From contig NZ_JAUSXG010000001.1 of the NCBI RefSeq assembly GCF_030815855.1, forward strand, positions 2,418,001-2,482,000: 64,000 nt of DNA, in the 5' to 3' direction. The translations under genes and the position numbers were made by a program. The notes under the pieces are model-generated. The model saw only the letters and a list, made by a program, of their open reading frames with translations, made no database searches and was not told where the DNA came from. This DNA is from Variovorax paradoxus (lineage in GTDB: Bacteria; Pseudomonadota; Gammaproteobacteria; Burkholderiales; Burkholderiaceae_C). This document shows positions 35,717 through 49,761 of the stretch, piece by piece. The stretch's first letter is position 1. Each line of letters begins with the position of its first letter.

Positions 35717-36790
35717 CTACGGCAGGTTCTCGCGAAAAATCACCTGGCTGCGGGTGGCTTCCACACCCCCGAGCGCTTCGCGCCCGTCGCGCAAATTGGC
35801 GAAGATGCGCACGCAGTTCATCAGCGTCGTGTGCGGGCTTTGCGTAATCACCGCGTCCATGCTGCCGTCGATCAGCAGCGTGCGCGTGTCGGGCGTGAGC
35901 CCGTGCCCGATGAAGACCACCTTCTGCTCGCGTCCGGCCTCTTTCAGCGCCCGCGCCACGCCGTCGGATGCACCGCCGATGTTGTAGATGCCGCCCATGT
36001 CGGGATACTGCTCCAGCAGCGCGCGGGTCTGGCGGTAGTTCTTGCCGGCGTCGTCCTGCCCTTCGCGCAGGCCCACCACCTCGAGCCGCGGAAACATCTC
36101 GTCGATCACGTGCAGGAAGCCGGCTTCGCGCTCTTCGTGGGCCTTGTAGCTCAGGCTGCCCGCGATGAGCGCGACCTTGGCGGCGCGCGCACCGATGAAG
36201 CGGCCGATGAGGTAGCCCGCGGTGCGCCCGGCCGCGCGGTTGTCCAGCCCCACGAACGCGGCCCGCTCCGAGTTCGACAGATCAGAGATCAGCGTGACCA
36301 CCGGCAGCCCGCGCGCGGCCAGCGCCGCGACCGCCTCGCGCACCGCGGGGTGCTCCAGCGCCATCATCGCGATGCCGTCGCAGCGCTGGCCGTGGCGCCG
36401 CAGCGCGTCCGCCAGCTCCTGCGGATTGAAGCTCTCGATGAACACCGTGCGGCACTGCACGTTGAACGGCGCCCAGTGCTCCTGCGAATAGCCCACCATG
36501 TCGCCCAGCATGCGGATGAAACGGTTGGTGCCGGCGGGCAGCAGGAACACCAGCCGAAGCGGCGGCGGCGTGAGCGCCGCGTAGAGCTCGGGGCCCGGCA
36601 GGTAGTCGAGCTCGCCCGCGGCCTTGAGCACGCGCTGCACCGTGGCGTCGCGCACGCCGGGGCGGCGGTTGAGCACGCGGTCGACAGTCGCGGTCGACAC
36701 CTGAGCCGCACGCGCGATGTCGACCACGCGCGCGCGGCGCGCATCGGTCGGCATCGAGGTCGGCAACGGAGGTGAAGGGTTATCCCGCAT
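35717..36790 (-). CDS. LacI-family transcriptional regulator
   Basis: A 357-residue LacI regulator. HTH: VVDIARAAQVSTATVDRVLNRRPGV; the effector domain resembles periplasmic sugar-binding proteins (VTLISDLSNS, FVGLDNRAAGRTAGYLIGRF). 'VDRVLN' instead of VSRVLN is a known variant of sugar-acid and inositol regulators. An alternative start at 36754 would still hold the HTH. It is convergent with the island's last gene and divergent from the TRAP/RuBisCO-like operon, whose promoter region carries repeated TGCATC sites, so it is the likely regulator of that operon. Confidence 0.87.
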   Translation of the reverse strand: MRDNPSPPLPTSMPTDARRARVVDIARAAQVSTATVDRVLNRRPGVRDATVQRVLKAAGELDYLPGPELYAALTPPPLRLVFLLPAGTNRFIRMLGDMVGYSQEHWAPFNVQCRTVFIESFNPQELADALRRHGQRCDGIAMMALEHPAVREAVAALAARGLPVVTLISDLSNSERAAFVGLDNRAAGRTAGYLIGRFIGARAAKVALIAGSLSYKAHEEREAGFLHVIDEMFPRLEVVGLREGQDDAGKNYRQTRALLEQYPDMGGIYNIGGASDGVARALKEAGREQKVVFIGHGLTPDTRTLLIDGSMDAVITQSPHTTLMNCVRIFANLRDGREALGGVEATRSQVIFRENLP

Positions 36791-36823
36791 ACATCAAAAA
36801 CCATCAGGGTCGAGTTTGACCTG

Positions 36824-36884
36824 GATGATGCATCCTTTTATCTTCGCTGTGGCTCGAATTGAATGGTGCATCAGATTGCATCAA
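36824..36884. promoter_or_regulatory. TGCATC-repeat operator region between lacI-type and TRAP genes
   Basis: Three TGCATC cores occur within about 55 bases: GATGCATC (36827-36834, a perfect palindrome), TGGTGCATCA (36864-36873, one mismatch from TGATGCATCA) and TTGCATCAA (36876-36884). LacI proteins bind such short dyads. The first two are 38 bases apart centre to centre. They cover the gap between divergent genes, so they could control both. Confidence 0.55.
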
Positions 36885-36913
36885 CCGCATTCCGAAGATC
36901 CAGGAGACAAAAC

Positions 36914-37933
36914 ATGACATCGCTGACCCGCCGCAGTGCTTTGCGCACCCTTTCCGCCCTTCCCGCCGCCGGCATCGTGTCGGCCGTGCCGCGCATCGCG
37001 CGCGCCGCGGAGTTCTCGTACAAGTACGGCAACAACCTGCCGCTCAGCCATCCGCTGAACGTGCGCGCGCAAGAGGCTGCCGACCGCATCGCCAAGGAAA
37101 CCAACGGCCGGGTCGAGATCAAGATCTTTCCGAACAACCAGCTCGGTGGCGACACCGACATGCTCGCGCAGGTGCGTTCGGGCGGCATCGAGTTCTTCAC
37201 GCCGTCTGCACTCGTCATTGCCACGCTGGTGCCGGTGGCCGCCATCAACGCGGTGGGCTTCGCCTTCAACGACTACGCCCAGGTGTGGGGCGCCATGGAC
37301 GGCAAGCTCGGCGCCCACGTGCGCGGCGCCATCGCCAAGTCGCGCCTCTATGCCTTCGAGAAGATGTGGGACAACGGCTTTCGCCAGACCACGAGCAGCA
37401 AGGCCGCCGTCTCGAATGCCAAGGACATGGACGGCCTGAAGATCCGCGTGCCCGTGAGCCCACTGTCGATCTCCATGTTCAAGGGCCTGGGCGCCGCGCC
37501 CGCGAGCCTGCAGTTCAGCGAGGTCTACTCGGCCCTGCAGACGAAGATCGTCGATGCGCAGGAAAACCCGCTGCCGATCATCCAGGTGGCCAAGCTGTTC
37601 GAGGTGCAGAAGTTCTGCTCGCTCACCAACCACATCTGGGACGGCTACTGGTTCATTGCCAACGGCCGCGCCTGGGAGGCGCTGCCCGACGACCTCAAGA
37701 CCATCGTGGCGCGCGCCATCAACGACGCCGGCATGCAGCAGCGCGAAGACATCAAAAAGCTCAACGAATCGGTGGTCGGCGACCTGCAGGCCAAGGGCCT
37801 CACCATCAACCGCCCGACCGCCGACAGCTTCCGCGCCAAGCTGCGCGAGTCGGGTTTCTACGGCGAATGGAAAGGCCGCTTCGGCCCCCAGGCGTGGGCG
37901 CTGCTCGAAGGCACCGTCGGCAAGCTGGCCTGA
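36914..37933 (+). CDS. TRAP transporter solute-binding protein (DctP family)
   Basis: A 339-residue periplasmic receptor of the DctP family. The twin-arginine-like leader (TRRSALRTLSAL) is cut near RIARAAE. Family segments are YKYGNNLPLSHPLNVRAQEAADRI, IKIFPNNQLGGDTDMLAQVRSGG and QENPLPII. The carboxylate-binding arginine lies in MDGLKIRVPVS. Start at 36914 follows CAGGAGACAAAAC. Expected ligand from the operon: a sugar acid. Confidence 0.9.
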   Translation: MTSLTRRSALRTLSALPAAGIVSAVPRIARAAEFSYKYGNNLPLSHPLNVRAQEAADRIAKETNGRVEIKIFPNNQLGGDTDMLAQVRSGGIEFFTPSALVIATLVPVAAINAVGFAFNDYAQVWGAMDGKLGAHVRGAIAKSRLYAFEKMWDNGFRQTTSSKAAVSNAKDMDGLKIRVPVSPLSISMFKGLGAAPASLQFSEVYSALQTKIVDAQENPLPIIQVAKLFEVQKFCSLTNHIWDGYWFIANGRAWEALPDDLKTIVARAINDAGMQQREDIKKLNESVVGDLQAKGLTINRPTADSFRAKLRESGFYGEWKGRFGPQAWALLEGTVGKLA

Positions 37934-37939
37934 GCGGCC

Positions 37940-39847
37940 ATGGTGCATGAATCCACTTTCGAGGCGGCGACCCTCCTGGACGAGGACGTGGGCGCCGGCC
38001 CTTCGGCCAATGCGCTGAGCGGCATGGCCGCGCGCGCCGACCGCGTGCTCGGCGGCGCCGTCGAGGCCGTGGCCGCGCTGCTGGTGCTGGCCGAGATCTG
38101 CGTGCTGTTCGCGGGCGTGGTGTCGCGCTACGTGTTCCACGCGCCGCTGGTGTGGTCGGACGAACTCGCGTCGATCCTGTTCCTGTGGCTCTCGATGCTC
38201 GGGGCCGTGGTGGCGCTGCGGCGTGGCGAGCACATGCGCATGACGGCGCTGCTGCAGAAGGTGGCGCCCTCGACGCGCGCCATGCTCGACGCATTCGCCA
38301 TCGCGGCTTCGATCACGTTCCTGGTGCTCATCGTCTGGCCCTCGATCGACTACGCGCACGAAGAGTCGTTCATCGTCACGCCCGCGCTGGAAATCAGCAA
38401 CGCCTGGCGCGCCGCGGCCATTCCGGCCGGCATCGGCATCATGCTGGTGATGGCGCTGCTGCGGCTGATGCGCGTGTGCACAGGAAGGCAGATAGCAGTC
38501 GCGGTGCTCGGCATGGCCGCGCTGGTGGCCGCCTTCTGGCTCGCCGCGCCACTGTTCGCAACGCTCGGCAAGTTCAACCTGGTTGTCTTCTTCGTGGTCG
38601 TGGTGGCGGCCACGGTGCTTTCGGGCGTGCCCATCGCGTTCTCGTTCGCGCTCGCCACCTTCGGCTACCTGGCGCTCACCACGCGCACGCCGCTGCTGGT
38701 AATGGTGGGGCGGCTCGACGAAGGCATGTCGCACCTGATCCTGCTCGCGGTGCCGCTCTTCATTTTCCTGGGCGCGCTGATCGAGATGACGGGCATGGCA
38801 CGCGCCATGATCCAGTTCCTCGCGAGCCTGCTGGGCCATGTGCGCGGCGGCCTCTCGTATGTGCTGATCGGCGCGATGTACCTGGTGTCTGGCATTTCGG
38901 GCTCCAAGATCGCCGACATGGCGGCCATTGCGCCCGTGCTGTTCCCCGAGATGGTCAAGCGCGGCGCCAAGCCCGGCGACCTGGTGGCGCTGCTCTCGGC
39001 CACCGGTGCCCAGACCGAAACGATTCCGCCATCGATCGTGCTGATCACCATCGGCTCGGTCACGGGCATTTCGATTGCCGCGCTGTTCACGGGCGGGCTG
39101 CTGCCGGCCGTGGTGCTGGGCGCGGCGCTGTGCGTGGTCGTGTGGTGGCGCTACCGCCGCGAAGACCTGGGCGGCGTGCAGCGCTACAGCAAGCGCGAAA
39201 TCGGCAAGCTGCTGATGGTCGCGCTGCCCGCGGTGCTGCTGCCCTTCGTGATCCGCGCCGCCGTGGTCGAAGGCGTGGCCACGGCCACCGAGGTATCGAC
39301 CATCGGCATCGTGTACTCGGCGCTGGTCGGGCTCTTCGTGTACCGGCAGTTCGACTGGAAGCGGCTCAAGCCGATGCTGGTCGACACGGCCTCGCTCTCG
39401 GGCGCGATCATCTTCATTGTCGGCTGCGCCACAGCCATGGCCTGGGGCCTCACGCAGTCGGGCTTCTCGCAGGACCTGGCCCGCGTCATGGGCGCGCTGC
39501 CGGGCGGCGCCTACGGCTTCCTGGCCGTATCCATCGTCGCCTTCATCGTGCTGGGCAGCGTGCTCGAGGGCATTCCGGCCATCGTGCTGTTCGGCCCCTT
39601 GCTGTTTCCCATTGCCAAGGCCGCGGGCGTGCACGAGGTGCACTACGCGATGGTTGTGATCTTCTCGATGGGCATCGGCCTCTTCGCACCGCCCTTCGGC
39701 GTCGGCTACTACGGCGCATGCGCGGTGAGCAAGGTCAACCCCGACGAAGGCATCAAGCACATCTGGGGCTACATCGCGGCAATGCTGGTGGGCCTGGTGA
39801 TCGTGGCCGCCTTCCCGTGGTTCTCGACCGGCTTCCTGAAATTCTGA
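37940..39847 (+). CDS. TRAP transporter fused permease (DctQ-DctM)
   Basis: A 635-residue membrane protein joining the small DctQ domain (about residues 30-190, four helices, with VVSRYVFHAPLVWSDELASIL) to the large DctM domain (about 195-635, with VLSGVPIAFSFALATFGYLA and VPLFIFLGALIEMTGMARAM). Such fusions are a normal variant of TRAP transporters. The gene starts 6 bases after the receptor stop. It moves the receptor's ligand inward using the sodium or proton gradient. Confidence 0.9.
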   Translation: MVHESTFEAATLLDEDVGAGPSANALSGMAARADRVLGGAVEAVAALLVLAEICVLFAGVVSRYVFHAPLVWSDELASILFLWLSMLGAVVALRRGEHMRMTALLQKVAPSTRAMLDAFAIAASITFLVLIVWPSIDYAHEESFIVTPALEISNAWRAAAIPAGIGIMLVMALLRLMRVCTGRQIAVAVLGMAALVAAFWLAAPLFATLGKFNLVVFFVVVVAATVLSGVPIAFSFALATFGYLALTTRTPLLVMVGRLDEGMSHLILLAVPLFIFLGALIEMTGMARAMIQFLASLLGHVRGGLSYVLIGAMYLVSGISGSKIADMAAIAPVLFPEMVKRGAKPGDLVALLSATGAQTETIPPSIVLITIGSVTGISIAALFTGGLLPAVVLGAALCVVVWWRYRREDLGGVQRYSKREIGKLLMVALPAVLLPFVIRAAVVEGVATATEVSTIGIVYSALVGLFVYRQFDWKRLKPMLVDTASLSGAIIFIVGCATAMAWGLTQSGFSQDLARVMGALPGGAYGFLAVSIVAFIVLGSVLEGIPAIVLFGPLLFPIAKAAGVHEVHYAMVVIFSMGIGLFAPPFGVGYYGACAVSKVNPDEGIKHIWGYIAAMLVGLVIVAAFPWFSTGFLKF

Positions 39848-39884
39848 TCACAACAACACACTCACATCACCGGAGCCAACCGCA

Positions 39885-40424
39885 ATGAGTCGATTCCTCG
39901 GCGAGATCCGCCAGCTGGGCTATGTCGTGCACGACATCGAAGCCGCCATGGACTACTGGAGCACCACGCTGGGCGTGGGCCCATGGTTCTACAACCCCAA
40001 GGTGCCCATCAAGAACTACCGCTACAACGGCGAGGCGCACGAGCCGCACAACTCGGTGGCGCTCGCCAATTCGGGCTACGTGCAGGTCGAACTGATCCAG
40101 ACGCGCAACGACGTGCCATCGATGTACCGCGACTTCCTTCAGGCCGGCCGCACCGGCCTGCAGCACGTCGCCTACTGGACGGCCGACTACGACGCCGACC
40201 TGGCGCGCCTCACCGCACAGGGTTTCAAGCCGGTGATGAGCGGCGAAGTTGGCGAGCGCGGGCGCTTCATCTACTTCGACACCGAGTACCACCCGGGCAC
40301 CGTCATCGAGCTTTCCGAAGTGGCAGGGCCGAAGGGCAAGATGTTCGACCTGATCCGCAGCGCCTCCGAGGGCTGGGACGGCAGCGAGCCGGTGCGGCCC
40401 TTTCCCGACCTGAGCAAGCTGTGA
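39885..40424 (+). CDS. VOC-superfamily (glyoxalase/epimerase-like) protein
   Basis: A 179-residue vicinal-oxygen-chelate protein with two beta-alpha-beta-beta-beta units (LGYVVHDIEAAMDYWSTTLGVGP and LQHVAYWTADYDADLARLTAQGF). Probable metal ligands: Glu in VQVELIQ, His in LQHVAYW and Glu in TVIELSE; the first ligand, His in methylmalonyl-CoA epimerase, appears to be a Gln before LGYVV. An epimerase or isomerase role is plausible. Encoded directly before a RuBisCO-like protein, it may provide an isomerase step missing from the cluster. Confidence 0.75.
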   Translation: MSRFLGEIRQLGYVVHDIEAAMDYWSTTLGVGPWFYNPKVPIKNYRYNGEAHEPHNSVALANSGYVQVELIQTRNDVPSMYRDFLQAGRTGLQHVAYWTADYDADLARLTAQGFKPVMSGEVGERGRFIYFDTEYHPGTVIELSEVAGPKGKMFDLIRSASEGWDGSEPVRPFPDLSKL

Positions 40425-40426
40425 CG

Positions 40427-41695
40427 ATGGCGCCTGAACGCATCCGCGCGCGCTACCTGATCGAGACGCCGGTGGACCCGGCCGCCGTGGCCGAGGTGAT
40501 GGCCGGCGAGCAATCGTGCGGCACCTTCACACGCGTGGAGGGCGAAACCGATGCGCTGCGCGAACGCGCGCGCGCGACGGTCGAGGCGATCACCGAGCTG
40601 GAACCGGCCTCTTCGCCGAGCCTGCCGAACGCACTGCTCGAACGCAAGGGCACGCGCGGCCCGTGGCGGCGTGCGCATGTCGACATCTCGTTTCCCGTGG
40701 CGAACATCGGTGCCAACCTGCCGACGCTCGCGGCCACGGTGTCGGGCAACCTGTACGACCTCGGCGAAGTGACGGGCCTGCGGCTCGAATCGCTGCAGGT
40801 GCCGGCCGCCTACCGCGCGCGGTTCGAGATGCCGCGTGTCGGCATCGCCGGCACGCGGCGCGCCACGGGCGTGGCGAGCGGTGCGCTGGTCGGTACGATC
40901 ATCAAGCCGAACGTGGGGCTGTCGGCCGTGGAGACGGCGGCGCTGGTCGCACGGCTCTGCGCCGCGGGCGTCGATTTCATCAAGGACGACGAGGTCTGTG
41001 CCGACCCCGCGCATGCGCCGCTCGCCGAGCGCGTCCCGGCCGTGATGGCCGCCGTGCGCGCGCACCAGGAACGCACCGGCAAGCACGTGATGGTGGCCTT
41101 CAACATCACCGACGAAACCGATGCGATGAAGCGGCATGCCGATCTCGTCGAGCGCGAAGGCGGCTCGTGCGTCATGGCGAGCCTCAACTGGTGCGGCCAC
41201 TCGGGCATCCAGACGCTGCGGCGCCACACGGGCCTGGCGCTGCACGGGCACCGCAACGGCTACGGTGCACTGTCGCGGCACCCGCTGCTCGGTATTTCGT
41301 TCCAGGCCTACCAGACGCTCTGGCGCCTCGCGGGCGTGGACCACATGCACGTGCACGGCCTGCAAGGCAAGTTCTCGCAGCCCGACAGCGAAGTCATCGA
41401 ATCGACCCGCGACTGCTTCACGCCGCTCACCGATGCGGCGGACGACCGCGTGATGCCCGCCTTCTCGTCCGGCCAATGGGCGGGCACGGTGCCCGCCACC
41501 TGGGCGGCCATCGGCAGCGACGACCTGCTCTTCATGGCCGGCGGCGGCATCCTTGCGCACCCGGACGGCGCGGAAGCCGGCGTGACCAGCATCCGTCAGG
41601 CCTGGTCGGCTGCCCGAGCGGGCACCGCGCTGGCGGATGCGGCGAAACACGCACCCGAACTCGCACGCGCCCTCGCCTTCTTCGGCAGGCCATGA
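40427..41695 (+). CDS. RuBisCO-like protein, form IV (candidate 3-oxo-isoapionate-4-phosphate enzyme)
   Basis: A 422-residue RuBisCO large-subunit homologue without a small subunit gene nearby. Conserved: GTIIKPNVGLS with Lys160, the activation segment FIKDDEV (Lys186, Asp188, Glu189), LHGHRNGYG with His273 and Arg276, loop 6 GLQGKFSQ with Lys315, and the phosphate-binding AFSSGQWAG and GGGILAHPDGAEAG. The carbamate lysine is therefore present, as in acid-sugar RLPs. Pairing with a DUF1537 kinase (4-base overlap) matches the D-apiose branch in which a kinase makes 3-oxo-isoapionate-4-phosphate and an RLP (OiaT or OiaX) cleaves it. The exact reaction is not decided. Confidence 0.82.
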   Translation: MAPERIRARYLIETPVDPAAVAEVMAGEQSCGTFTRVEGETDALRERARATVEAITELEPASSPSLPNALLERKGTRGPWRRAHVDISFPVANIGANLPTLAATVSGNLYDLGEVTGLRLESLQVPAAYRARFEMPRVGIAGTRRATGVASGALVGTIIKPNVGLSAVETAALVARLCAAGVDFIKDDEVCADPAHAPLAERVPAVMAAVRAHQERTGKHVMVAFNITDETDAMKRHADLVEREGGSCVMASLNWCGHSGIQTLRRHTGLALHGHRNGYGALSRHPLLGISFQAYQTLWRLAGVDHMHVHGLQGKFSQPDSEVIESTRDCFTPLTDAADDRVMPAFSSGQWAGTVPATWAAIGSDDLLFMAGGGILAHPDGAEAGVTSIRQAWSAARAGTALADAAKHAPELARALAFFGRP

Positions 41696-43020
41696 CCTCC
41701 GCTCCGACCGTCGTCTATTACGGCGACGATTTCACCGGCGCCACCGACACGCTCGGCACCGCGGCGCGCGCGGGCCTGCGTGCCCTGCTGTTCCTGGAGA
41801 CGCCCGATGCCGCGCGGCTCGAACACGCCGGCCCGCTCCACGTGCTGGGCATCGCGGGCGCGGCGCGTGCGATGACCCCCGAGGCGATGCAGGCCGAACT
41901 GGGCCCCGTCGCCGCGCTGTTCCGTTCGCTCGGCGCGCGCGTGCTGCACTACAAGACCTGCTCGACCTTCGACAGCGCACCGCACATCGGCTCCATCGGC
42001 GCCGCCGTGCGCGCGCTGCGCACCGCCGTCGAGCAACCGTGGACGGCCATCGTCGGCGGCCAGCCCAACCTCGGCCGGCATTGCCTGTTCGGCCACCTGT
42101 TCGCCGCGGCGGGCGCCGGCGGCGAGGTGTTCCGCATCGACCGGCATCCGACGATGAGCCGTCACCCCGTCACGCCGATGGATGAGGCGGACCTGCGGCT
42201 TCACCTCGCCAGGCAGGGGCTGGCCGATGTGCGCTCCATACCGTTCACCGCCGCGTCGCAGGGCACGGATGCGCTCGGCGAGGCGCTGCAGCGCACGTTG
42301 CAGCAGCCCTTTTCCGGCACCGGCGCCGTGCTGTTCGACGTGGCCGACGCAGCGCAGCTCGCAACCATCGGCGAGGTGCTGTGGGCACAGGCCAGCCGTG
42401 CCACGCTGCTTGCGGTGGGGCCGAGCAGCGTGGTCGACGCACTGGCCACGGCGCTCGGACCAAAGCATGCCGATGCACCGGCAGAGCGGCCGCGGGTGGC
42501 CCCCGCACGCGGCCCCGTGCTGGTGCTGGCCGGAAGCCTCTCGCCTGTGACGGCGCGGCAGGTGGCGGCGGCGCAGTCTTTCGACACCGTGTGGCTCGAC
42601 GCACCGATGCTCGCGCAGCGGGATGCCGCCACGCTGGCGCGCCACGCCCGGGACATCGTGAACGAGCTCTCCCGCGGCCGCAACGTGCTGGCCTGCACGC
42701 GGCCCGCAGAGGCGCAGATGCCGCCCGTCGCCGGATTCGATGCGCAGGCGCTCGCGCGCGCCGGTGGCGACCTGCTCGCCAGGGTGCTGGCGATGGTGCC
42801 GCTGCAACGCGTCGGCATCGCCGGCGGCGACACCTCGAGCCACGGCGTGCAGGCGCTCGATGCGTGGGGGCTGTCCTATGTGGCGGACATGGGGGCCGGC
42901 GCCTCGCTGTGCCAAGTGCACAGCGACCACCCCGCGCTCGACGGCATGGAGATCATGTTGAAGGGCGGCCAGATGGGCTCGGCCGACGTGTTCGAGCGCC
43001 TGGTGCACGGCATCGCCTAG
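41692..43020 (+). CDS. DUF1537 acid-sugar kinase family protein (OiaK/OtnK-like)
   Basis: A 442-residue four-carbon acid-sugar kinase family member. N-terminal YYGDDFTGATDTLG holds the catalytic aspartates; KTCSTFDSAPHIGSIG and VGGQPNLGRH are substrate segments; the C-terminal nucleotide-binding part has AGGDTSSHGVQAL and MLKGGQMGSADVFERL. These kinases phosphorylate 3-oxo-tetronates or 3-oxo-isoapionate with ATP. It starts within the stop of the RuBisCO-like gene (ATGA at 41692-41695), which ties the two together. Confidence 0.87.
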   Translation: MTSAPTVVYYGDDFTGATDTLGTAARAGLRALLFLETPDAARLEHAGPLHVLGIAGAARAMTPEAMQAELGPVAALFRSLGARVLHYKTCSTFDSAPHIGSIGAAVRALRTAVEQPWTAIVGGQPNLGRHCLFGHLFAAAGAGGEVFRIDRHPTMSRHPVTPMDEADLRLHLARQGLADVRSIPFTAASQGTDALGEALQRTLQQPFSGTGAVLFDVADAAQLATIGEVLWAQASRATLLAVGPSSVVDALATALGPKHADAPAERPRVAPARGPVLVLAGSLSPVTARQVAAAQSFDTVWLDAPMLAQRDAATLARHARDIVNELSRGRNVLACTRPAEAQMPPVAGFDAQALARAGGDLLARVLAMVPLQRVGIAGGDTSSHGVQALDAWGLSYVADMGAGASLCQVHSDHPALDGMEIMLKGGQMGSADVFERLVHGIA

Positions 43021-43218: not shown

Positions 43219-43346
43219 AGCACCGCTTTGGTGTGGTTTTCGCGGTCTTGCGAATACCCGGCGCAGGAAGCGCCAGCACCTTCAGCCCGCACTCTGCGGG
43301 CAACCCTCCCCCCAACCCCGTCCGTCAATGCAGCCCGCCAGGCTGC
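43219..43346 (+). promoter_or_regulatory. hairpin-rich leader of nirB with NtrC-like dyad
   Basis: Four stems follow one another: CACC/GGTG with loop GCTTT, GGCGC/GCGCC with loop AGGAA, GCCCGC/GCGGGC with loop ACTCT, and GCAGCC/GGCTGC with loop CGCCA. The first also reads as an NtrC-like GCACC-N5-GGTG site. Nitrate-assimilation leaders in several proteobacteria fold into hairpins bound by ANTAR antiterminators, which recognise paired six-base loops; here the loops are five bases, so that model does not fit as it stands. Confidence 0.45.
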
Positions 43347-43379
43347 GTTGCGGCATTTGCATTTGAAAGGCCCCACCCC

Positions 43380-45848
43380 ATGAAGAAACTCAAGCTCGTG
43401 ATGGTCGGCAACGGCATGGCCGGCGTACGCACGCTGGAAGAGCTCCTGAAGCTCGCCCCGGACCTGTACGACATCACCGTCTTCGGTGCCGAGCCGCACC
43501 CCAACTACAACCGCATCCTCCTGTCGCCCGTGCTCGCCGGCGAGCAGACCGTGGACGAGATCGTGCTCAACAGCTGGGAGTGGTACACCGACAACCACAT
43601 CACCCTGCACGCCGGCAAGAAAGTCGTCGAGGTCGACCGCGTCAAGCGCATCGTGCGCGCCGTGGATGCGCAAGGCGCCGTCACCGAGGCCGCCTACGAC
43701 CGCCTCCTGATGTGCACCGGCTCCAACCCCTTCATGCTCCCGGTGCCCGGCAAGGACCTCAAGGGCGTCATCGCCTACCGCGACATCGCCGACACCGACT
43801 ACATGATCGAGACCGCCAAGACCCACAAGCACGCGGTGGTCATCGGCGGCGGCCTCTTGGGCCTGGAGGCGGCCAACGGCCTGATGCTGCGCGGCATGAG
43901 CGTCACCGTGGTGCACGTCATGCCCTGGCTCATGGAGCGCCAGCTGGACGACGTGGCCGGCAAGCTGTTGCAGAAGTCCCTGGAAGACCGGGGCCTGAAG
44001 TTCCTCATCGGCGCCCAGACCCAGGAGCTCGTCGGTGGCGATGATGGCCGGGTCAAGGCCATCCGCTTCAAGGACGGCACCGAAGTGGCCGCCGACCTGG
44101 TCGTCATGGCCGTCGGCATCCGCCCCAACGTGGAGCTGGCCGAGAAGATGCGCCTGCACTGCAACCGCGGCATCGTGGTCAACGACACCATGCAGACCGT
44201 GACCGATGCGCGCATCTACTCGGTGGGCGAATGCGCCGCCCACCGCGGCATCGCCTACGGCCTGGTCGCCCCTCTCTTCGAGCAGGCCAAGGTCGCGGCC
44301 AACCACCTGGCCCAGTTCGGCATCGGCCGCTACCTGGGCTCGCTCACCTCCACCAAGCTCAAGGTCACGGGCATCGACCTGTTCTCGGCCGGCGAGTTCA
44401 TGGGCGGCGAAGGCACCGAGGAGATCGTCATGAGCGACCCCTTCGGCGGGGTCTACAAGAAACTGGTCATCAAGGACGACAAGCTGGTGGGCGCGTGCCT
44501 CTACGGCGACACGGTGGACGGCAGCTGGTACTTCAAGCTCCTGCGCGACGGGCGCAGCGTGCACGACATCCGCGACAAGCTGATGTTCGGCGAATCCAAC
44601 ATCGGCGACACCGGCCACGAGGGCCACAACAAGGCCGCCAGCATGCCCGACGAGGCCGAGGTGTGCGGCTGCAACGGCGTGACCAAGGGCACCATCTGCA
44701 AGGCGATCAAGGACAAGGGCCTGTTCACGCTGGACGAGGTCAAGAAGCACACCAAGGCCAGCGCCAGCTGCGGCTCGTGCACCGGCCTGGTGGAGCAGAT
44801 CCTGATGTTCACCGCCGGCGGCGACTATTCGGCCACGCCCAAGAAGAAGGCGGTGTGCGGCTGCACCGATGCGAGCCACCAGGATGTGCGCGAAGCCATC
44901 AAGAAGGAACACTGGCTCAGCCACGACGCGGTGTACCGCGGCCTGGGCTGGCGCACGCCCAACGGCTGCGCGACCTGCCGCCCGGCGATCAACTACTACC
45001 TGATCTCGACCTGGCCCAAGGAGGCCAAGGACGATCCGCAGAGCCGCTTCATCAACGAGCGCAGCCACGCCAACATCCAGAAGGACGGCACCTACTCGGT
45101 CATTCCGCGCATGTGGGGCGGCCACACCACGCCGGACGAGCTGCGGCGCATCGCGGATGCGGCCGACAAGTACAAGATCCCGACGGTCAAGGTGACGGGC
45201 GGCCAGCGCATCGACCTGCTGGGGGTCAAGAAGGAAGACCTGGAAGGGGTCTGGAAGGACATCGGCATGCCCTCGGGCTTTGCGTATGCCAAGAGCCTGC
45301 GCACGGTGAAGACCTGCGTGGGCAGCGAGTGGTGCCGCTTCGGCACGCAAGACAGCACCCAGATGGGCAAGGACCTGGAGCGGGCGCTGTGGGCGATGTA
45401 TTCGCCGCACAAGGTCAAGCTGGCTGTATCCGGCTGCCCGCGCAACTGCGCCGAGGCGGGGATCAAGGACGTGGGGGTGATCGGGGTGGACTCGGGCTGG
45501 GAGCTGTACGTGGGCGGCAACGGCGGCATCAAGACCGAGGTGGCGCAGTTCCTGGTGAAGGTGAAGACGGCCGCCGAGGTGATGGAGTACTCGGGTGCCT
45601 TCCTGCAGCTGTACCGCGAGGAAGGCTGGTACCTGGAGCGCACGGTGCACTACATCGGTCGGGTGGGGCTGGACTATGTGAAGAAGAAGATCCTGGAGGA
45701 CGAGGCCGGGCGCAAGGCATTGTGGGAGCGGCTGCAGTTCGCGCTGGATGGGGAGCCCGATCCCTGGTTCGAGTCGAGCCAGGCGTCTGTGGATGTGCGG
45801 CAGTTCACGCCGGTTGCCGTGGTGGACGAGGCAACGCAAGCGGCCTGA
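43380..45848 (+). CDS. nirB: assimilatory nitrite reductase, large subunit
   Basis: An 822-residue NAD(P)H-dependent nitrite reductase, reducing nitrite to ammonia. N-terminal FAD/NAD domains (VMVGNGMAGVRTLEELL, AVVIGGGLLGLEAANGL), a BFD-type [2Fe-2S] region with cysteines in VCGCNGVTKG and ASCGSCTG, and the C-terminal sirohaem/4Fe-4S half with TCVGSEWCRFG and VSGCPRNCAEAG. Start at 43380 gives the family N-terminus MKKLKLVMVG. Full length, no sign of decay. It forms a complex with NirD, encoded 18 bases downstream. Confidence 0.95.
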   Translation: MKKLKLVMVGNGMAGVRTLEELLKLAPDLYDITVFGAEPHPNYNRILLSPVLAGEQTVDEIVLNSWEWYTDNHITLHAGKKVVEVDRVKRIVRAVDAQGAVTEAAYDRLLMCTGSNPFMLPVPGKDLKGVIAYRDIADTDYMIETAKTHKHAVVIGGGLLGLEAANGLMLRGMSVTVVHVMPWLMERQLDDVAGKLLQKSLEDRGLKFLIGAQTQELVGGDDGRVKAIRFKDGTEVAADLVVMAVGIRPNVELAEKMRLHCNRGIVVNDTMQTVTDARIYSVGECAAHRGIAYGLVAPLFEQAKVAANHLAQFGIGRYLGSLTSTKLKVTGIDLFSAGEFMGGEGTEEIVMSDPFGGVYKKLVIKDDKLVGACLYGDTVDGSWYFKLLRDGRSVHDIRDKLMFGESNIGDTGHEGHNKAASMPDEAEVCGCNGVTKGTICKAIKDKGLFTLDEVKKHTKASASCGSCTGLVEQILMFTAGGDYSATPKKKAVCGCTDASHQDVREAIKKEHWLSHDAVYRGLGWRTPNGCATCRPAINYYLISTWPKEAKDDPQSRFINERSHANIQKDGTYSVIPRMWGGHTTPDELRRIADAADKYKIPTVKVTGGQRIDLLGVKKEDLEGVWKDIGMPSGFAYAKSLRTVKTCVGSEWCRFGTQDSTQMGKDLERALWAMYSPHKVKLAVSGCPRNCAEAGIKDVGVIGVDSGWELYVGGNGGIKTEVAQFLVKVKTAAEVMEYSGAFLQLYREEGWYLERTVHYIGRVGLDYVKKKILEDEAGRKALWERLQFALDGEPDPWFESSQASVDVRQFTPVAVVDEATQAA

Positions 45849-45866
45849 ACGAGAAGGAACAAAGCA

Positions 45867-46283
45867 ATGAACAACAGCAACACCAACGAGTGGAAAGTGA
45901 TCTGCCGCGTCGAGGACATTCCGGTGCTGGGCGCCCGCCGCGTGGCGCGCCCGGTGGGCGTGGATGTGGCGGTGTTCCGCAATGCCGAGGACCAGGTCTT
46001 CGCGCTGCTGGACCGTTGCCCGCACAAGGGCGGCCCCTTGAGCCAGGGCATCGTGTTCGGTACCAGCGTGGCATGCCCGCTGCACAACTGGGCCATCGGC
46101 CTGGACGATGGATGCGCCAAGTCGCCCGATGAAGGCTGCACGCCGAAGTTCGCGGTGAAGGTGGCTGAAGGCGTGGTGCACCTGAATTCGAAAGAGCTCG
46201 CCACGCATGCGGTGGAGCTCGATCGCCCGGTCGCGGGGCCGGCCAACCGCGCCCGTCTCGAGACCGAAGACTCTGCCGTCTGA
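45867..46283 (+). CDS. nirD: assimilatory nitrite reductase, small subunit
   Basis: A 138-residue NirD protein with a Rieske-type fold. The segments DRCPHKGGPLSQGIV and ACPLHNWAIGLDDG occupy the Rieske positions and retain a Cys-x-His and Cys-x2-His pattern, more complete than in enterobacterial NirD, which lacks the cluster ligands. It therefore might bind a [2Fe-2S] cluster. It follows nirB directly and supports its activity. Confidence 0.92.
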   Translation: MNNSNTNEWKVICRVEDIPVLGARRVARPVGVDVAVFRNAEDQVFALLDRCPHKGGPLSQGIVFGTSVACPLHNWAIGLDDGCAKSPDEGCTPKFAVKVAEGVVHLNSKELATHAVELDRPVAGPANRARLETEDSAV

Positions 46284-46296
46284 CACAACGAACACC

Positions 46297-47127
46297 ATGA
46301 GCCTCACTCTCAGGTCCTCGTCGCGCAGCGACGACCGCAACCCGGGCATGCCGCCCGCGCACGGCCGCTGCACGCTGGTCGGTGCCGGCCCGGGCGATCC
46401 CGAACTGCTCACGATCAAGGCGCTCAAGGCCATCCAGTCGGCCACGGTGCTGCTCGTCGACGACCTGGTCAGCGATGAGATCGTCGCCATGGCACAGCCC
46501 GGTGCACGCGTGATCCACGTCGGCAAGCGCGGCGGCTGCAAGAGCACGCCGCAGAGCTTCATCGAGCGGCTGATGATCATGGCCGTGCGCGAAGGCGAGC
46601 ACGTCGTGCGGCTCAAGGGCGGCGACCCTTTCATCTTCGGCCGCGGCGGCGAAGAGGTCGAGCACCTGGCGCAGGCCGGCATCCATGTCGAGGTGGTGAA
46701 CGGCATCACGTCCGGCCTTGCCGGTTTGACCTCGCTCGGCGTGCCGCTGACGCACCGCGACCATGCACAGGGCGTCGTCTTTATCACGGGGCATGCAAAG
46801 CCTGGTGCGCCGGGCACCGACTGGCACGCGCTGGCCGCCACGGCGCATGCCGCGCGGCTCACGCTGGTCATCTACATGGGCGTGTCGGGCGCGGGCCGCA
46901 TCCAGGAAGAGTTGCTGAGCGGCCTGCCGCCTTCGACGCCGATCGTCGTGGTCCAGAGCGCCAGCCTGCCGACCCAGCGGCACGCGGTGGGAACACTCGC
47001 GACGCTGGAGCAGACCATTGCCGGCAACGGCCTGTGCAGCCCTTCGATCATCGTGGTGGGCGATGTCCTGCAAGGACTGGCCGCCGCGGCGTGTTCCGCA
47101 CCTCTTGCGCTCGAGAAGGCCGCCTGA
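46297..47127 (+). CDS. cobA: uroporphyrinogen-III C-methyltransferase (SUMT)
   Basis: A 276-residue SAM-dependent methyltransferase making precorrin-2 on the way to sirohaem, the cofactor of NirB. Motifs: CTLVGAGPGDPELLTIKAL, LKGGDPFIFGRGGEEV, GITSGLAGLTSLGVPLTHRD and VIYMGVSGAGRIQ. It is the stand-alone form, without CysG dehydrogenase/chelatase domains. Start at 46297 leaves a short Arg/Ser-rich tail before the catalytic domain. Placement after nirD fits cofactor supply. Confidence 0.92.
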   Translation: MSLTLRSSSRSDDRNPGMPPAHGRCTLVGAGPGDPELLTIKALKAIQSATVLLVDDLVSDEIVAMAQPGARVIHVGKRGGCKSTPQSFIERLMIMAVREGEHVVRLKGGDPFIFGRGGEEVEHLAQAGIHVEVVNGITSGLAGLTSLGVPLTHRDHAQGVVFITGHAKPGAPGTDWHALAATAHAARLTLVIYMGVSGAGRIQEELLSGLPPSTPIVVVQSASLPTQRHAVGTLATLEQTIAGNGLCSPSIIVVGDVLQGLAAAACSAPLALEKAA

Positions 47128-47155
47128 GGCCTCGGCCTCCCCTCGCCTCTTTTTT
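47126..47155 (+). terminator. possible terminator or attenuator between cobA and the FNT gene
   Basis: GAGGC-CTCG-GCCTC (47126-47139) overlaps the cobA stop and is followed, 10 bases on, by TTTTTT (47150-47155). The stem is short and the T-run displaced, so read-through into the FNT gene is likely; at best it reduces downstream expression. Confidence 0.3.
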
Positions 47156-47189
47156 CTTCCTCTATTTTTTCATCGAACCAAAGCAACGC

Positions 47190-48002
47190 ATGGCCTATTT
47201 GCAGCCTTCCGAATTCGTCACCAAGATGGTCGACGCCGGTGAATCCAAGATCTTCATGTCCACCCGAGACACGCTCATCCGCGCCTTCATGGCGGGTGCG
47301 ATCCTGGCGCTGGCGGCCGTGTTCGCGGTGACCATCAACGTGCAGACCGGCTATTCGATCATCGGCGCGATCCTGTTCCCGGTCGGCTTCTGCATTCTTT
47401 ACCTGCTCGGCTTCGACCTGCTGACCGGTGTGTTCGTGCTGACGCCGCTCGCGCTCATCGACAAGCGCCCCGGCGTCACCATCGGCGGCGTGCTGCGCAA
47501 CTGGGGCCTGGTGTTCGTCGGCAACTTTCTCGGTGCGTTCACCGTGGCCGTGCTCATGGCCATCGTCTTCACCTTCGGCTTCACGAGCCCGCCCGACAAG
47601 GTCGGCCAGGTGATCGCCACCATCGGCGAGGCGCGCACGCTGGGCTATTCCAACCACGGCGCGGCGGGCATGCTGACGCTCTTCGTGCGCGGCATGCTGT
47701 GCAACTGGATGGTGTCTACGGGCGTGGTGGGTGCGATGATCTCGACCTCGGTCTCCGGCAAGGTGATTGCCATGTGGATGCCGATCATGGTGTTCTTCTT
47801 CATGGTGTTCGAGCACTCGGTGGTCAACATGTTCCTGTTTCCGTCGGCGCTGCTCATGGGCGGCAACTTTTCGATCATGGACTACATCATCTGGAACGAG
47901 ATCCCCACGGTGCTGGGCAACCTCATCGGCGGCCTGTCGTTCACCGGCCTGACGCTGTACGCGACGCACGTGAAAACGGCACCCAAGCGCGTCCCCCGCT
48001 AA
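47190..48002 (+). CDS. formate/nitrite transporter family channel (NirC-like)
   Basis: A 270-residue FNT channel with six membrane segments. Seen: AFMAGAILALAAVF, LGFDLLTGVFVLTPL, WGLVFVGNFLGAF, RGMLCNWMVSTGV (slit residues) and FEHSVVNMFLFP, the conserved histidine-bearing segment. It moves nitrite (or formate) across the inner membrane. Its position in the nirBD operon favours nitrite import over formate. Confidence 0.9.
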   Translation: MAYLQPSEFVTKMVDAGESKIFMSTRDTLIRAFMAGAILALAAVFAVTINVQTGYSIIGAILFPVGFCILYLLGFDLLTGVFVLTPLALIDKRPGVTIGGVLRNWGLVFVGNFLGAFTVAVLMAIVFTFGFTSPPDKVGQVIATIGEARTLGYSNHGAAGMLTLFVRGMLCNWMVSTGVVGAMISTSVSGKVIAMWMPIMVFFFMVFEHSVVNMFLFPSALLMGGNFSIMDYIIWNEIPTVLGNLIGGLSFTGLTLYATHVKTAPKRVPR

Positions 48003-48027
48003 ACAAGCCTTTTTGCGCCGCGTGACG

Positions 48028-49761
48028 ATGCGCTCCGCACTCGCGGTCTCGATCGGCCAGCACTCCGACAAGGGGCGCAAGGAAACCAACCAGGATTTCC
48101 ACGGCGCCGCCCTGCCGGAGGGGCAGGTCCGCAGTGCCAAGGGCGTGGCAATTGCCATTGCCGACGGCATCAGCAGCAGCGACGTCAGCCATGTGGCCAG
48201 CGAGTCGGCGGTCCGGAGCTTTCTGACCGACTACTACTGCACCTCGGACGCATGGAGCGTGAGCCGCTCGGCACAGCGGGTGCTCACGGCCGCCAACGCC
48301 TGGCTGCATGCGCAAACGCAAAACGGCGGCGGCCGATTCGACAAGGACCGCGGCTACGTCTGCACCTTCAGCGCGCTGGTCGTCAGGTCGACCACCGCGC
48401 ATGTCTTTCATGTGGGCGACACCCGCGTCTACCGCTGGCATGCAGGCGCACTCGAGCAGCTGACCGAAGACCACCGGGTTTCGGTGGGCGGCGGACAAAG
48501 CTACCTTGGCCGCGCGCTGGGCATCGGTCCGCATGTGGAGATCGACTACCGCGCCATTCCCATCGAGCCCGGCGATGTCTTCCTGCTGACCTCGGATGGC
48601 GTTCATGAGCATGTCGACGCTGCCGCGATAAAGGCGGCGCTGGATGCAAACCCCCGCGACCTCGACGCCGCGGCTCGCAGCATTGCCGAGGAAGCCTACG
48701 GCCGCGGCAGCCCCGACAACCTGACGGTGCAGATCGTCCGGATCGATGCGCTGCCCGAGGGCGACATCAACGAACTGCAAGCACAGCGCGCCGCGCTGCA
48801 GCTGCCGCCGATTCTCGAGGCGCGCATGCGCTTCGACGGCTACACCATCGTGCGCGACCTGCACCACAGCCACCGCAGCCACATCTACCTGGCGACCGAC
48901 GACGACACAGGCCAACGCGTGGTGCTCAAGACCCCTTCGGTCGATCTGCAGAACGACGAAGCCCACCTGGACCGCTTTCTGCTCGAAGAATGGGTGGCGC
49001 GGCGCATCGACAGTGCGCACGTGCTCAAGCCGCACGCCACCCATCGCAAGCGCAACCATCTCTACGTGGCGATGGAATTCGTCGAGGGGCAAACGCTGTC
49101 GCAGTGGATGGTCGACAACCCGCGGCCGAGCCTCGAATCGGTGCGCGGCATCGTCGAGCAGCTTGCGAAAGGCCTGCAGGCTTTCCATCGCCTGGAAATG
49201 CTGCACCAGGACTTGCGGCCCGAAAACATCATGATCGACCGCACGGGCACGGTGCGCATCATCGACTTCGGCTCGGCCTGGGTGGCCGGCCTGGACGACA
49301 GCACGCTGGCAGGGCGGGAGCAGATACTGGGCACGGTGCAGTACACGGCGCCCGAATACTTCGTGGGCGAAGGCGGCTCGGCAAGGTCCGACCTGTTCTC
49401 GCTGGCCGTCATCGTCTACCAGATGCTGACCGGACGCCTGCCCTACGGCGCGCAGGCGGCACGCATCAGGACGCGGGCCGACCAGCGGAACCTGCAGTAC
49501 AGGTCCGCGCTGGACACGCAAACCACCATTCCGGCGTGGATCGACGAAGTGCTGAGGAAGGCGTTGCACCCTAACCCGCTCAAGCGCTACGAGGTGCTGT
49601 CGGAGTTCGTGCAAGACCTGAGGCAGCCCCACCCGGATTTTTTGAACAGCCGCGGCACACCGCTGGTCGAGAAGAACCCGGTGATTTTCTGGAAGTGCAC
49701 GACCTTGCTGCTGGGCATCGCGGTGCTTGTGCTGCTTGGCTTGCTCAGCCGGCGAGGCTGA
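48028..49761 (+). CDS. bifunctional PP2C phosphatase / Ser-Thr kinase membrane protein
   Basis: A 577-residue fusion. The PP2C phosphatase (about residues 1-245) has metal aspartates in NQDFHG, IADGISSSD, TSDGVHEH and SPDNLT. The kinase domain (about 265-535) has the lysine in VVLKTPS, catalytic loop HQDLRPENIM (HQD instead of HRD) and IDFGSAW; no GxGxxG loop is visible. A single membrane helix (TTLLLGIAVLVLLGLL) ends the protein. Similar fused genes stand next to nirB/nasA in Pseudomonas. Start at 48028 is preferred over a TTG at 48013. It may tune nitrogen assimilation by protein phosphorylation. Confidence 0.87.
   Translation: MRSALAVSIGQHSDKGRKETNQDFHGAALPEGQVRSAKGVAIAIADGISSSDVSHVASESAVRSFLTDYYCTSDAWSVSRSAQRVLTAANAWLHAQTQNGGGRFDKDRGYVCTFSALVVRSTTAHVFHVGDTRVYRWHAGALEQLTEDHRVSVGGGQSYLGRALGIGPHVEIDYRAIPIEPGDVFLLTSDGVHEHVDAAAIKAALDANPRDLDAAARSIAEEAYGRGSPDNLTVQIVRIDALPEGDINELQAQRAALQLPPILEARMRFDGYTIVRDLHHSHRSHIYLATDDDTGQRVVLKTPSVDLQNDEAHLDRFLLEEWVARRIDSAHVLKPHATHRKRNHLYVAMEFVEGQTLSQWMVDNPRPSLESVRGIVEQLAKGLQAFHRLEMLHQDLRPENIMIDRTGTVRIIDFGSAWVAGLDDSTLAGREQILGTVQYTAPEYFVGEGGSARSDLFSLAVIVYQMLTGRLPYGAQAARIRTRADQRNLQYRSALDTQTTIPAWIDEVLRKALHPNPLKRYEVLSEFVQDLRQPHPDFLNSRGTPLVEKNPVIFWKCTTLLLGIAVLVLLGLLSRRG

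What the first reader, a model, noticed from the sequence alone, without database searches (positions are those of the whole stretch)
36824..43020. RuBisCO-like protein / DUF1537 kinase cluster with a VOC protein and TRAP transporter
The RLP keeps the carbamate lysine segment and the phosphate-binding loops and is translationally coupled to a DUF1537 kinase, as in the kinase branch of D-apiose catabolism. But the cluster has no apiose dehydrogenase, lactonase or isomerase; only a VOC protein lies between transporter and RLP. It may use a ready-made acid (apionate or isoapionate) and the VOC protein may be the isomerase, a possible new variant.
Basis: partly seen in the sequence, partly recalled or inferred. 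Interest (0 to 1): 0.7.

Follow-up and report, generated by a model that had tools for sequence, protein, structure and literature searches.

The report
VOC-coupled RuBisCO-like sugar-acid pathway
A compact, repeatedly found bacterial gene set (uptake system, a small metal-site enzyme, a kinase and a RuBisCO relative) looks like a shortcut version of the known apiose breakdown route that starts from an acid that is already oxidised, and it gives a testable job to a RuBisCO-like protein of known structure.

Summary
Window 35717-43020 carries LacI(-), TRAP receptor, fused TRAP permease, a VOC protein, a RuBisCO-like protein (RLP) and a DUF1537 kinase; RLP and kinase overlap by ATGA. It is not an apiose cluster. 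RLP and kinase fall well below the NCBIfam OiaX/OiaK cut-offs (433 and 306 bits against 700). VOC-linked RLPs form one clade (100/99), apart from the two named OiaX rows, and that clade holds the crystal structure 3NWR. The linkage is tight: in two genome samples VOC relatives of 66% identity or more lie beside an RLP in 13 of 13 genomes, while the transporter is exchanged for other types. Only 2 of 24 clusters read hold a dehydrogenase, so the pathway probably needs an acid already at the keto level. One genome joins the same LacI/TRAP/VOC front end to an apiose-side RLP-kinase pair, which suggests the same intermediate, 3-oxo-isoapionate or a near analogue. Proposed route: import, VOC isomerisation, 4-phosphorylation, RLP cleavage, probably hydrolytic. 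Substrate and VOC reaction are inferred, not shown. New variant of a known kind.

The parts
35717..36790 (-). LacI-family regulator, divergent from the operon
   Evidence: Pfam LacI 50.9 bits and Peripla_BP_4 144.7 bits; a LacI gene is there in 23 of 24 clusters read
36791..36913 (.). divergent promoter region with GATGATGCATC at 36824-36834, possible LacI operator (weak)
   Evidence: GATGCATC found in 3 of 22 intergenic stretches; twice in the whole window
36863..37933 (+). TRAP solute receptor (DctP); likely start ATG 36914
   Evidence: Pfam DctP 233.6 bits; 64% identical to PDB 4OAN chain A; Arg195 in IRVP invariant in 14 rows
37940..39847 (+). fused DctQ-DctM TRAP permease
   Evidence: Pfam DctQ 97.1 and DctM 349.4 bits
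39885..40424 (+). VOC protein, proposed metal-dependent isomerase; candidate metal ligands Q10, E69, H94, E142
40427..41695 (+). RuBisCO-like protein, proposed phosphorylated 3-oxo-acid hydrolase or decarboxylase
   Evidence: Pfam RuBisCO_large 216.4 bits; OiaX model 433 of 700 bits; 73% identical to PDB 3NWR; clade support 100/99
41692..43020 (+). DUF1537 kinase, proposed 3-oxo-acid 4-kinase; ATGA overlap with the RLP
   Evidence: Pfam SBD_N 176.7, NBD_C 86.9 bits; OiaK model 306 of 700 bits, 3-oxo-tetronate kinase 154.6 of 350; 21 VOC-cluster kinases one clade 100/97

Best explanation
A LacI-controlled uptake and breakdown unit for a branched C4-C5 sugar acid that already carries a keto group. 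The TRAP system imports it. The VOC protein, with a glyoxalase/epimerase-type metal site, isomerises it without any cofactor to 3-oxo-isoapionate or a near analogue. The DUF1537 kinase phosphorylates O4. The RLP, with a carbamylated lysine, cleaves the 3-oxo acid 4-phosphate, more likely by hydrolysis (3-phosphoglycerate plus glycolate, as recalled for OiaT) than by decarboxylation. Shown by calls: anatomy, fixed VOC-RLP-kinase linkage, relation to but separation from OiaX/OiaK, lack of a linked dehydrogenase in most clusters, partner swap with an apiose-side pair in one genome. Inferred: the substrate, the order of steps, the VOC reaction, the products.
For: Gene order and coupling. VOC (66% identity or more) beside an RLP in 8 of 8 genomes of a 399-genome order sample and 8 of 8 (68% or more) of a 398-genome phylum sample, 13 distinct genomes together. 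The transporter changes while the three enzymes stay: of 24 clusters, 12 fused TRAP, 11 TRAP with separate permeases, 1 ABC, so the VOC protein looks like a core enzyme. SDR in only 2 of 24 (L004, L142; 77% identical to each other). No strong ApnO homologue in 10 of 12 cluster genomes, the window's included; controls G179 and G102 ring. Partner swap: G606 carries LacI (62%), receptor (75%), QM (76%), VOC (83%) joined to an RLP and kinase of the apiose side; the AU test rejects that RLP within the VOC clade, p 3e-5; its kinase sits with apiose-side kinases at 96/96. Receptor 64% identical to 4OAN of R. palustris HaA2; a review lists 2-acetolactate among TRAP ligands of a large survey, and I recall 4OAN as the entry modelled with it; acetolactate is the dideoxy analogue of 3-oxo-isoapionate. 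VOC fold nearest to methylmalonyl-CoA epimerases, HPPD-type domains and a glyoxalase I. No RpiB family in 10 of 13 cluster genomes, the window's included, so the recalled tetrulose-phosphate route after an OiaX-type decarboxylation looks unavailable there.
Against: I found no published activity for any member of the clade in the held papers. 4OAN-type receptors nearest to 4OAN (80 loci kept of 575 relatives, mostly Bradyrhizobium and Rhodopseudomonas) show no RLP and no VOC gene within the DNA held (20 of the 80 are under 20 kb), and 66 of 80 hold an acyl-CoA synthetase-like gene, so the ligand cannot simply be carried over. The 4OAN ligand is recalled. The partner swap rests on one genome. 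Two apiose-side genomes (G284, G029) also lack the ApnO homologue, so its absence is not specific; G749 and G678 have the VOC unit and a strong ApnO match elsewhere. The K177-place Asn and a mostly-VHG for VNG change are clade marks that could mean another substrate. RpiB absence matters only through recalled roles of LerI/DerI; G207, G678 and G729 do have RpiB, and the R. leguminosarum OiaX cluster shows no such isomerase among its annotated genes within 9 kb either. An unlinked dehydrogenase cannot be excluded.
Confidence: 0.42

Rival explanations
1. An apionate (or isoapionate) catabolic unit: TRAP imports the aldonic acid, an unlinked dehydrogenase oxidises it, then VOC, kinase and RLP act.
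For: In Cupriavidus a related TRAP receptor (53% to the window's) shares a stretch with an RLP-kinase pair, an alpha/beta hydrolase and an ApnO homologue. An SDR sits in front of the transporter in 2 of 24 clusters (L004, L142). G749 and G678 carry a strong ApnO homologue elsewhere in the genome.
Against: 22 of 24 clusters read have no dehydrogenase; no strong ApnO homologue in 10 of 12 cluster genomes, the window's included. In G678 the ApnO homologue lies 1.3 kb from a second RLP, away from the VOC unit.
Confidence: 0.2
2. A tetronate-type unit: a 2-oxo-tetronate is isomerised by the VOC protein to 3-oxo-tetronate, phosphorylated, and decarboxylated by the RLP to dihydroxyacetone phosphate, in place of OtnI and OtnC.
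For: Explains three enzymes, no dehydrogenase and no downstream gene. The kinase also matches the 3-oxo-tetronate kinase model (154.6 bits).
Against: The OiaK model scores twice as high (306 bits). The genome has a second DUF1537 gene that groups with the second kinase of L007, which by position is its annotated otnK. Partner swap with an apiose-side pair.
Confidence: 0.12
3. The VOC protein acts after the RLP, for example shifting the carbonyl of erythrulose 1-phosphate made by an OiaX-like decarboxylation.
For: A glyoxalase-type site fits proton shifts on alpha-hydroxyketones; RpiB family missing in 10 of 13 genomes would leave room for a substitute.
Against: Gene order puts VOC before RLP and kinase (weak); the RLP is not in the OiaX branch; an aldose-phosphate isomerase would still be needed.
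Confidence: 0.12
4. The VOC protein is a binding or detoxifying accessory, and the pathway is kinase plus RLP alone.
For: Some VOC proteins only bind (recalled); no VOC is annotated in four SDR-type RLP-kinase regions.
Against: Kept beside the RLP in 12 of 13 VOC-clade genomes of the two samples, through changes of transporter; metal-site residues invariant. The exception, G052, is on a 3 kb contig.
Confidence: 0.1

Closest known systems
D-apiose catabolism, kinase branch (OiaK with OiaX or OiaT); Carter et al. 2018, seen only as described and cited in passages of PMC6302742
   Same: RLP joined to a DUF1537 kinase; RLP and kinase score best against the OiaX and OiaK models; one genome mixes the two systems
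   Different: No Gfo/Idh dehydrogenase, lactonase or ApnO; TRAP in place of sugar ABC; VOC protein added; LacI in place of NanR; below equivalog cut-offs; different RLP branch
SDR + RLP + DUF1537 kinase regions with TRAP (L007, L011, L012) or MFS (L013)
   Same: Nearest RLP neighbours in the tree; related receptor (51-54% to the window's) in the three with TRAP; same kinase family
   Different: SDR (and in L007 a hydrolase and ApnO homologue) in place of VOC; LysR or NanR regulators; KPS in place of KPN
PDB 3NWR, deposited as 'A rubisco-like protein'
   Same: Lies inside the VOC clade, 73% identical to the window RLP
   Different: No function in the name as listed; its own gene context not seen here
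3-oxo-tetronate pathway (OtnI, OtnK, OtnC); otnK and otnC annotated in L007
   Same: Isomerase, then DUF1537 4-kinase, then decarboxylase logic (pathway recalled)
   Different: Different isomerase and decarboxylase families; kinase in another branch
Methylmalonyl-CoA epimerase / glyoxalase I (VOC)
   Same: Fold and metal-site positions
   Different: 26.5 bits against a 114.95 cut-off for the epimerase model; no CoA pathway or glutathione partner in the unit

Membership tests
OiaX (3-oxo-isoapionate-4-phosphate decarboxylase) | NCBIfam NF042437 score at or above 700 bits | tested here: not met
   433.1 bits; 426.3, 391.5, 394.5 bits for three other VOC-clade RLPs
OiaX (3-oxo-isoapionate-4-phosphate decarboxylase) | Position on the branch of named OiaX | tested here: not met
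   Separate starred branches in two trees, with two named OiaX rows
OiaT (transcarboxylase/hydrolase) | Clade with the characterised Xanthobacter enzyme | tested here: inconclusive
   No named OiaT sequence was found; the apiose-side clade holds Xanthobacteraceae RLPs and the window RLP is outside it
OiaT (transcarboxylase/hydrolase) | Hydrolysis to 3-phosphoglycerate and glycolate | not testable with these tools
   Needs purified enzyme
OiaK (3-oxo-isoapionate kinase) | NCBIfam NF042436 score at or above 700 bits | tested here: not met
   306 bits
DUF1537 acid-sugar kinase family | SBD_N and NBD_C domains over Pfam cut-offs | tested here: met
   176.7 and 86.9 bits against 25 and 28.3
RuBisCO superfamily, form IV-like | RuBisCO_large domain with carbamate K-D-D-E segment, below the cut-offs of bona fide RuBisCO models | tested here: met
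   216.4 bits; KDDE in 24 of 24 clade rows; rubisco_III 226.1 of 497.45 bits
Apiose catabolic cluster | Apiose dehydrogenase, lactonase and ApnO near the RLP-kinase pair | tested here: not met
   None in the window unit; no ApnO homologue at E 0.001 in the whole genome; dehydrogenase and lactonase were not searched genome-wide
VOC isomerase/epimerase type | Four metal-ligand positions of glyoxalase I / methylmalonyl-CoA epimerase kept | tested here: met
   Q10, E69, H94, E142 conserved; ligand identities in the known enzymes are recalled
VOC isomerase/epimerase type | Isomerase or epimerase activity | not testable with these tools
   Needs assay

The most novel reading that the evidence does not exclude
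The VOC protein is a cofactor-free alpha-ketol isomerase: it does by itself the skeletal shift that ApnO does with NAD, interconverting a 2-oxo branched acid (2-oxo-apionate type) and 3-oxo-isoapionate, and so feeds a RuBisCO-like hydrolase. That would be a new reaction for the VOC superfamily and an oxidation-free entry into the RLP pathway, and would give a function to the 3NWR clade.
Probability: 0.15. Interest if true: 0.72.

Novelty: new variant of a known kind. Interest (0 to 1): 0.5.

Why it matters
It gives a compact hypothesis for an RLP clade with a solved structure (3NWR) and no function in its name, found here in beta- and alphaproteobacteria, among them isolates from soil, plants and sea. 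If right, the apiose-type kinase/RLP module has several interchangeable front ends (ApnO, SDR, VOC), and a VOC enzyme stands where others have a redox step. It would also point to an environmental supply of branched keto-acids.

Tried and rejected
Plain apiose cluster: rejected, no linked upstream genes and no ApnO homologue in the genome (one search had no control genome, one search had). OiaX or OiaK membership: rejected on scores and trees. Tetronate kinase: less likely, a separate otnK-like gene exists at G000:C1:5560278. Transfer of the 4OAN ligand by linkage: weak, none of the 80 fetched 4OAN-type loci shows an RLP or VOC gene; these are the nearest 80 of 575 relatives, 20 of them under 20 kb, and two (L090, L093) show a 26-30% kinase-like match. 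VOC paralogues of about 50% identity lie in other contexts (SDRs, Bug-type receptors; named by similarity and by eye) and did not reveal the reaction. LacI operator: GATGCATC in only 3 of 22 intergenic stretches. Receptor model poor, pLDDT 43; used only to read the 4OAN title, which was cut before the ligand. Rows dropped: L140, a second copy of the G052 RLP, from the trees; 12 RLP rows (L140 among them) left out of the second RLP tree to shorten it, which also left out the RuBisCO row; the kinase of L175 was not among the 43 rows; G237 was seen only in short loci. The RLP searches used cut-offs of 1e-60 and 1e-135, the VOC searches 1e-30 and 1e-45. Literature: searches listed no held paper on a VOC-RLP-kinase unit; the primary papers of Carter 2018, Vetting 2015, Zhang 2016 and Erb 2018 are not held. 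PMC5812351, PMC6302742 and PMC7325909 were seen as passages only.
Full report
Observation. The window lies in a 5.95 Mb single-contig genome whose nearest named RLP relatives are Variovorax. A divergent LacI gene (35717-36790, minus) faces an operon of TRAP receptor, fused TRAP permease, VOC protein, RLP and DUF1537 kinase. The VOC stop is 2 bases before the RLP ATG (40427); RLP and kinase overlap by ATGA (41692-41695). The genes on the other side of LacI (AMP-binding ligases, a TctC receptor, thioesterase, SDR, enoyl-CoA hydratase) look like a separate acyl-CoA operon.

Known-family tests. The RLP scores 433 bits against the OiaX model, cut-off 700; the kinase 306 against OiaK, cut-off 700. 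Ten other RLPs, three of them VOC-linked, also fall short of OiaX. RLPs named OiaX in the plasmid records listed are 41-44% identical to the window RLP. The closest solved RLP is 3NWR, 73% identical.

Trees. In a 60-row RLP tree the 24 VOC-labelled rows form one clade (100/99); 3NWR and one contig-end copy (G052) are inside it, the two named OiaX rows are on a separate branch. The nearest neighbours are RLPs of the SDR-type regions (99/98; the matching fork has only 79/97). The kinase tree repeats the picture: 21 VOC-cluster kinases form one clade, 100/97. RLP and kinase thus seem to have evolved as a pair.

Active site. The VOC-clade rows keep the carbamate lysine with D and E and the K175, H294, R295, H327, K334 equivalents; the K177 place is Asn in 24 of 24, Ser in the other RLP groups, Ala in the two OiaX rows, Lys in the genome's own RuBisCO. 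RuBisCO residue numbers are recalled.

Linkage. In 399 genomes of the order, VOC-clade RLP occurs in 9 and the VOC protein at 66% identity or more in 8; all 8 are adjacent, and the ninth RLP sits on a 3,025-base contig with no VOC in the 1.7 kb before it. In 398 genomes of the phylum, 7 have a VOC-clade RLP, all with VOC beside it; VOC at 68% or more occurs in 8, the eighth being G606. Three genomes are in both samples. More distant VOC relatives (48-54%) are a separate group, not beside an RLP in the stretches read.

Gene content. I read 24 clusters in full: the window, 12 named plasmid records and 11 genome stretches. Every one has VOC, RLP and kinase in that order. LacI is found in 23; G098 has a LysR gene there. 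The transporter is a fused TRAP in 12, a TRAP with separate permeases in 11, and an ABC system with a family 3 binding protein in 1 (G377). An SDR lies between LacI and transporter in 2, Neorhizobium L004 and G352 (L142); the two SDRs are 77% identical. Selection note: these clusters were found by RLP or VOC similarity; the two Azospirillum records are near copies.

Redox argument. The characterised pathway reaches 3-oxo-isoapionate from apionate by an oxidation (recalled; paper not held). The candidate oxidoisomerase, the 'phosphogluconate dehydrogenase C-terminal domain' protein that sits in apiose-type regions (its role is recalled), is absent from G000 with two queries. Of 12 VOC-cluster genomes tested, G749 and G678 have a strong match elsewhere; 10 do not, though G658 has a 22-bit partial match. 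Controls G179 and G102 ring, but two apiose-side genomes, G284 and G029, are empty too. In G678 the match lies 1.3 kb from a second RLP, which I did not place in a tree. An isomerase cannot replace an oxidation; hence the substrate is most simply a keto-acid. That is inference.

Partner swap. G606 holds LacI (62%), receptor (75%), permease (76%) and VOC (83%) of this type, followed by an RLP and kinase of the apiose side. Forcing that RLP into the VOC clade costs 96 log-likelihood units (AU p 3e-5). Its kinase groups with apiose-side kinases, including that of the R. leguminosarum OiaX cluster (96/96). Two different kinase/RLP pairs thus serve the same front end, which suggests one intermediate. 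One genome only.

Receptor. It is 64% identical to 4OAN from R. palustris HaA2 RPB_2686. A review says a large survey found 2-acetolactate as a TRAP ligand (passages of PMC5812351); that 4OAN is this entry is recalled. Acetolactate carries a tertiary 2-hydroxyl and a 3-keto group, like 3-oxo-isoapionate without two hydroxyls. Against easy transfer: none of the 80 nearest 4OAN-like loci (of 575 relatives) shows an RLP, and 66 of 80 hold an acyl-CoA synthetase-like gene.

Products. The RpiB family is absent in 10 of 13 cluster genomes, the window's included; G207, G678 and G729 have it. Where it is absent the recalled route from erythrulose 1-phosphate is not available; this tilts towards hydrolysis, weakly.

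Verdict. A real, conserved, small catabolic module, related to but outside the described apiose enzymes. Substrate class fairly likely, exact substrate and VOC reaction open.

Noticed in passing
G000:C1:2936174-2937097 (outside the window): The genome also holds a RuBisCO large chain with KDDEN, GKLEGD and SGGIH motifs and 457 Pfam bits, so it may be able to fix CO2.
   Followed up: partly
G000:C1:5560278-5560949 (outside the window): Second DUF1537 gene, grouping with what is by position the annotated 3-oxo-tetronate kinase of L007.
   Followed up: partly
L073, L090, L093, L094 (Microvirga): 4OAN-type TRAP receptors there sit near an SDR 55-57% identical to the SDR of the Neorhizobium VOC-RLP cluster, hinting at a shared substrate family.
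   Followed up: partly
L017, L030 (Rhodopseudomonas, Bradyrhizobium): 4OAN-type TRAP genes followed by an AMP-binding acyl-CoA synthetase-like gene, found in 66 of 80 such loci; the acid may be activated with CoA there.
   Followed up: partly
L138 (G377): VOC-RLP-kinase unit with an ABC transporter (family 3 binding protein) in place of TRAP.
   Followed up: yes
window 36824-36834; L153, L009, L155: TTTGATGCATCAAA-like palindromes before the receptor gene in some clusters, possible LacI operator.
   Followed up: partly
window 43233-49761: Nitrite reductase-type protein, small Rieske protein, tetrapyrrole methylase, formate/nitrite transporter and a joined protein phosphatase/kinase follow the cluster.
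   Followed up: partly
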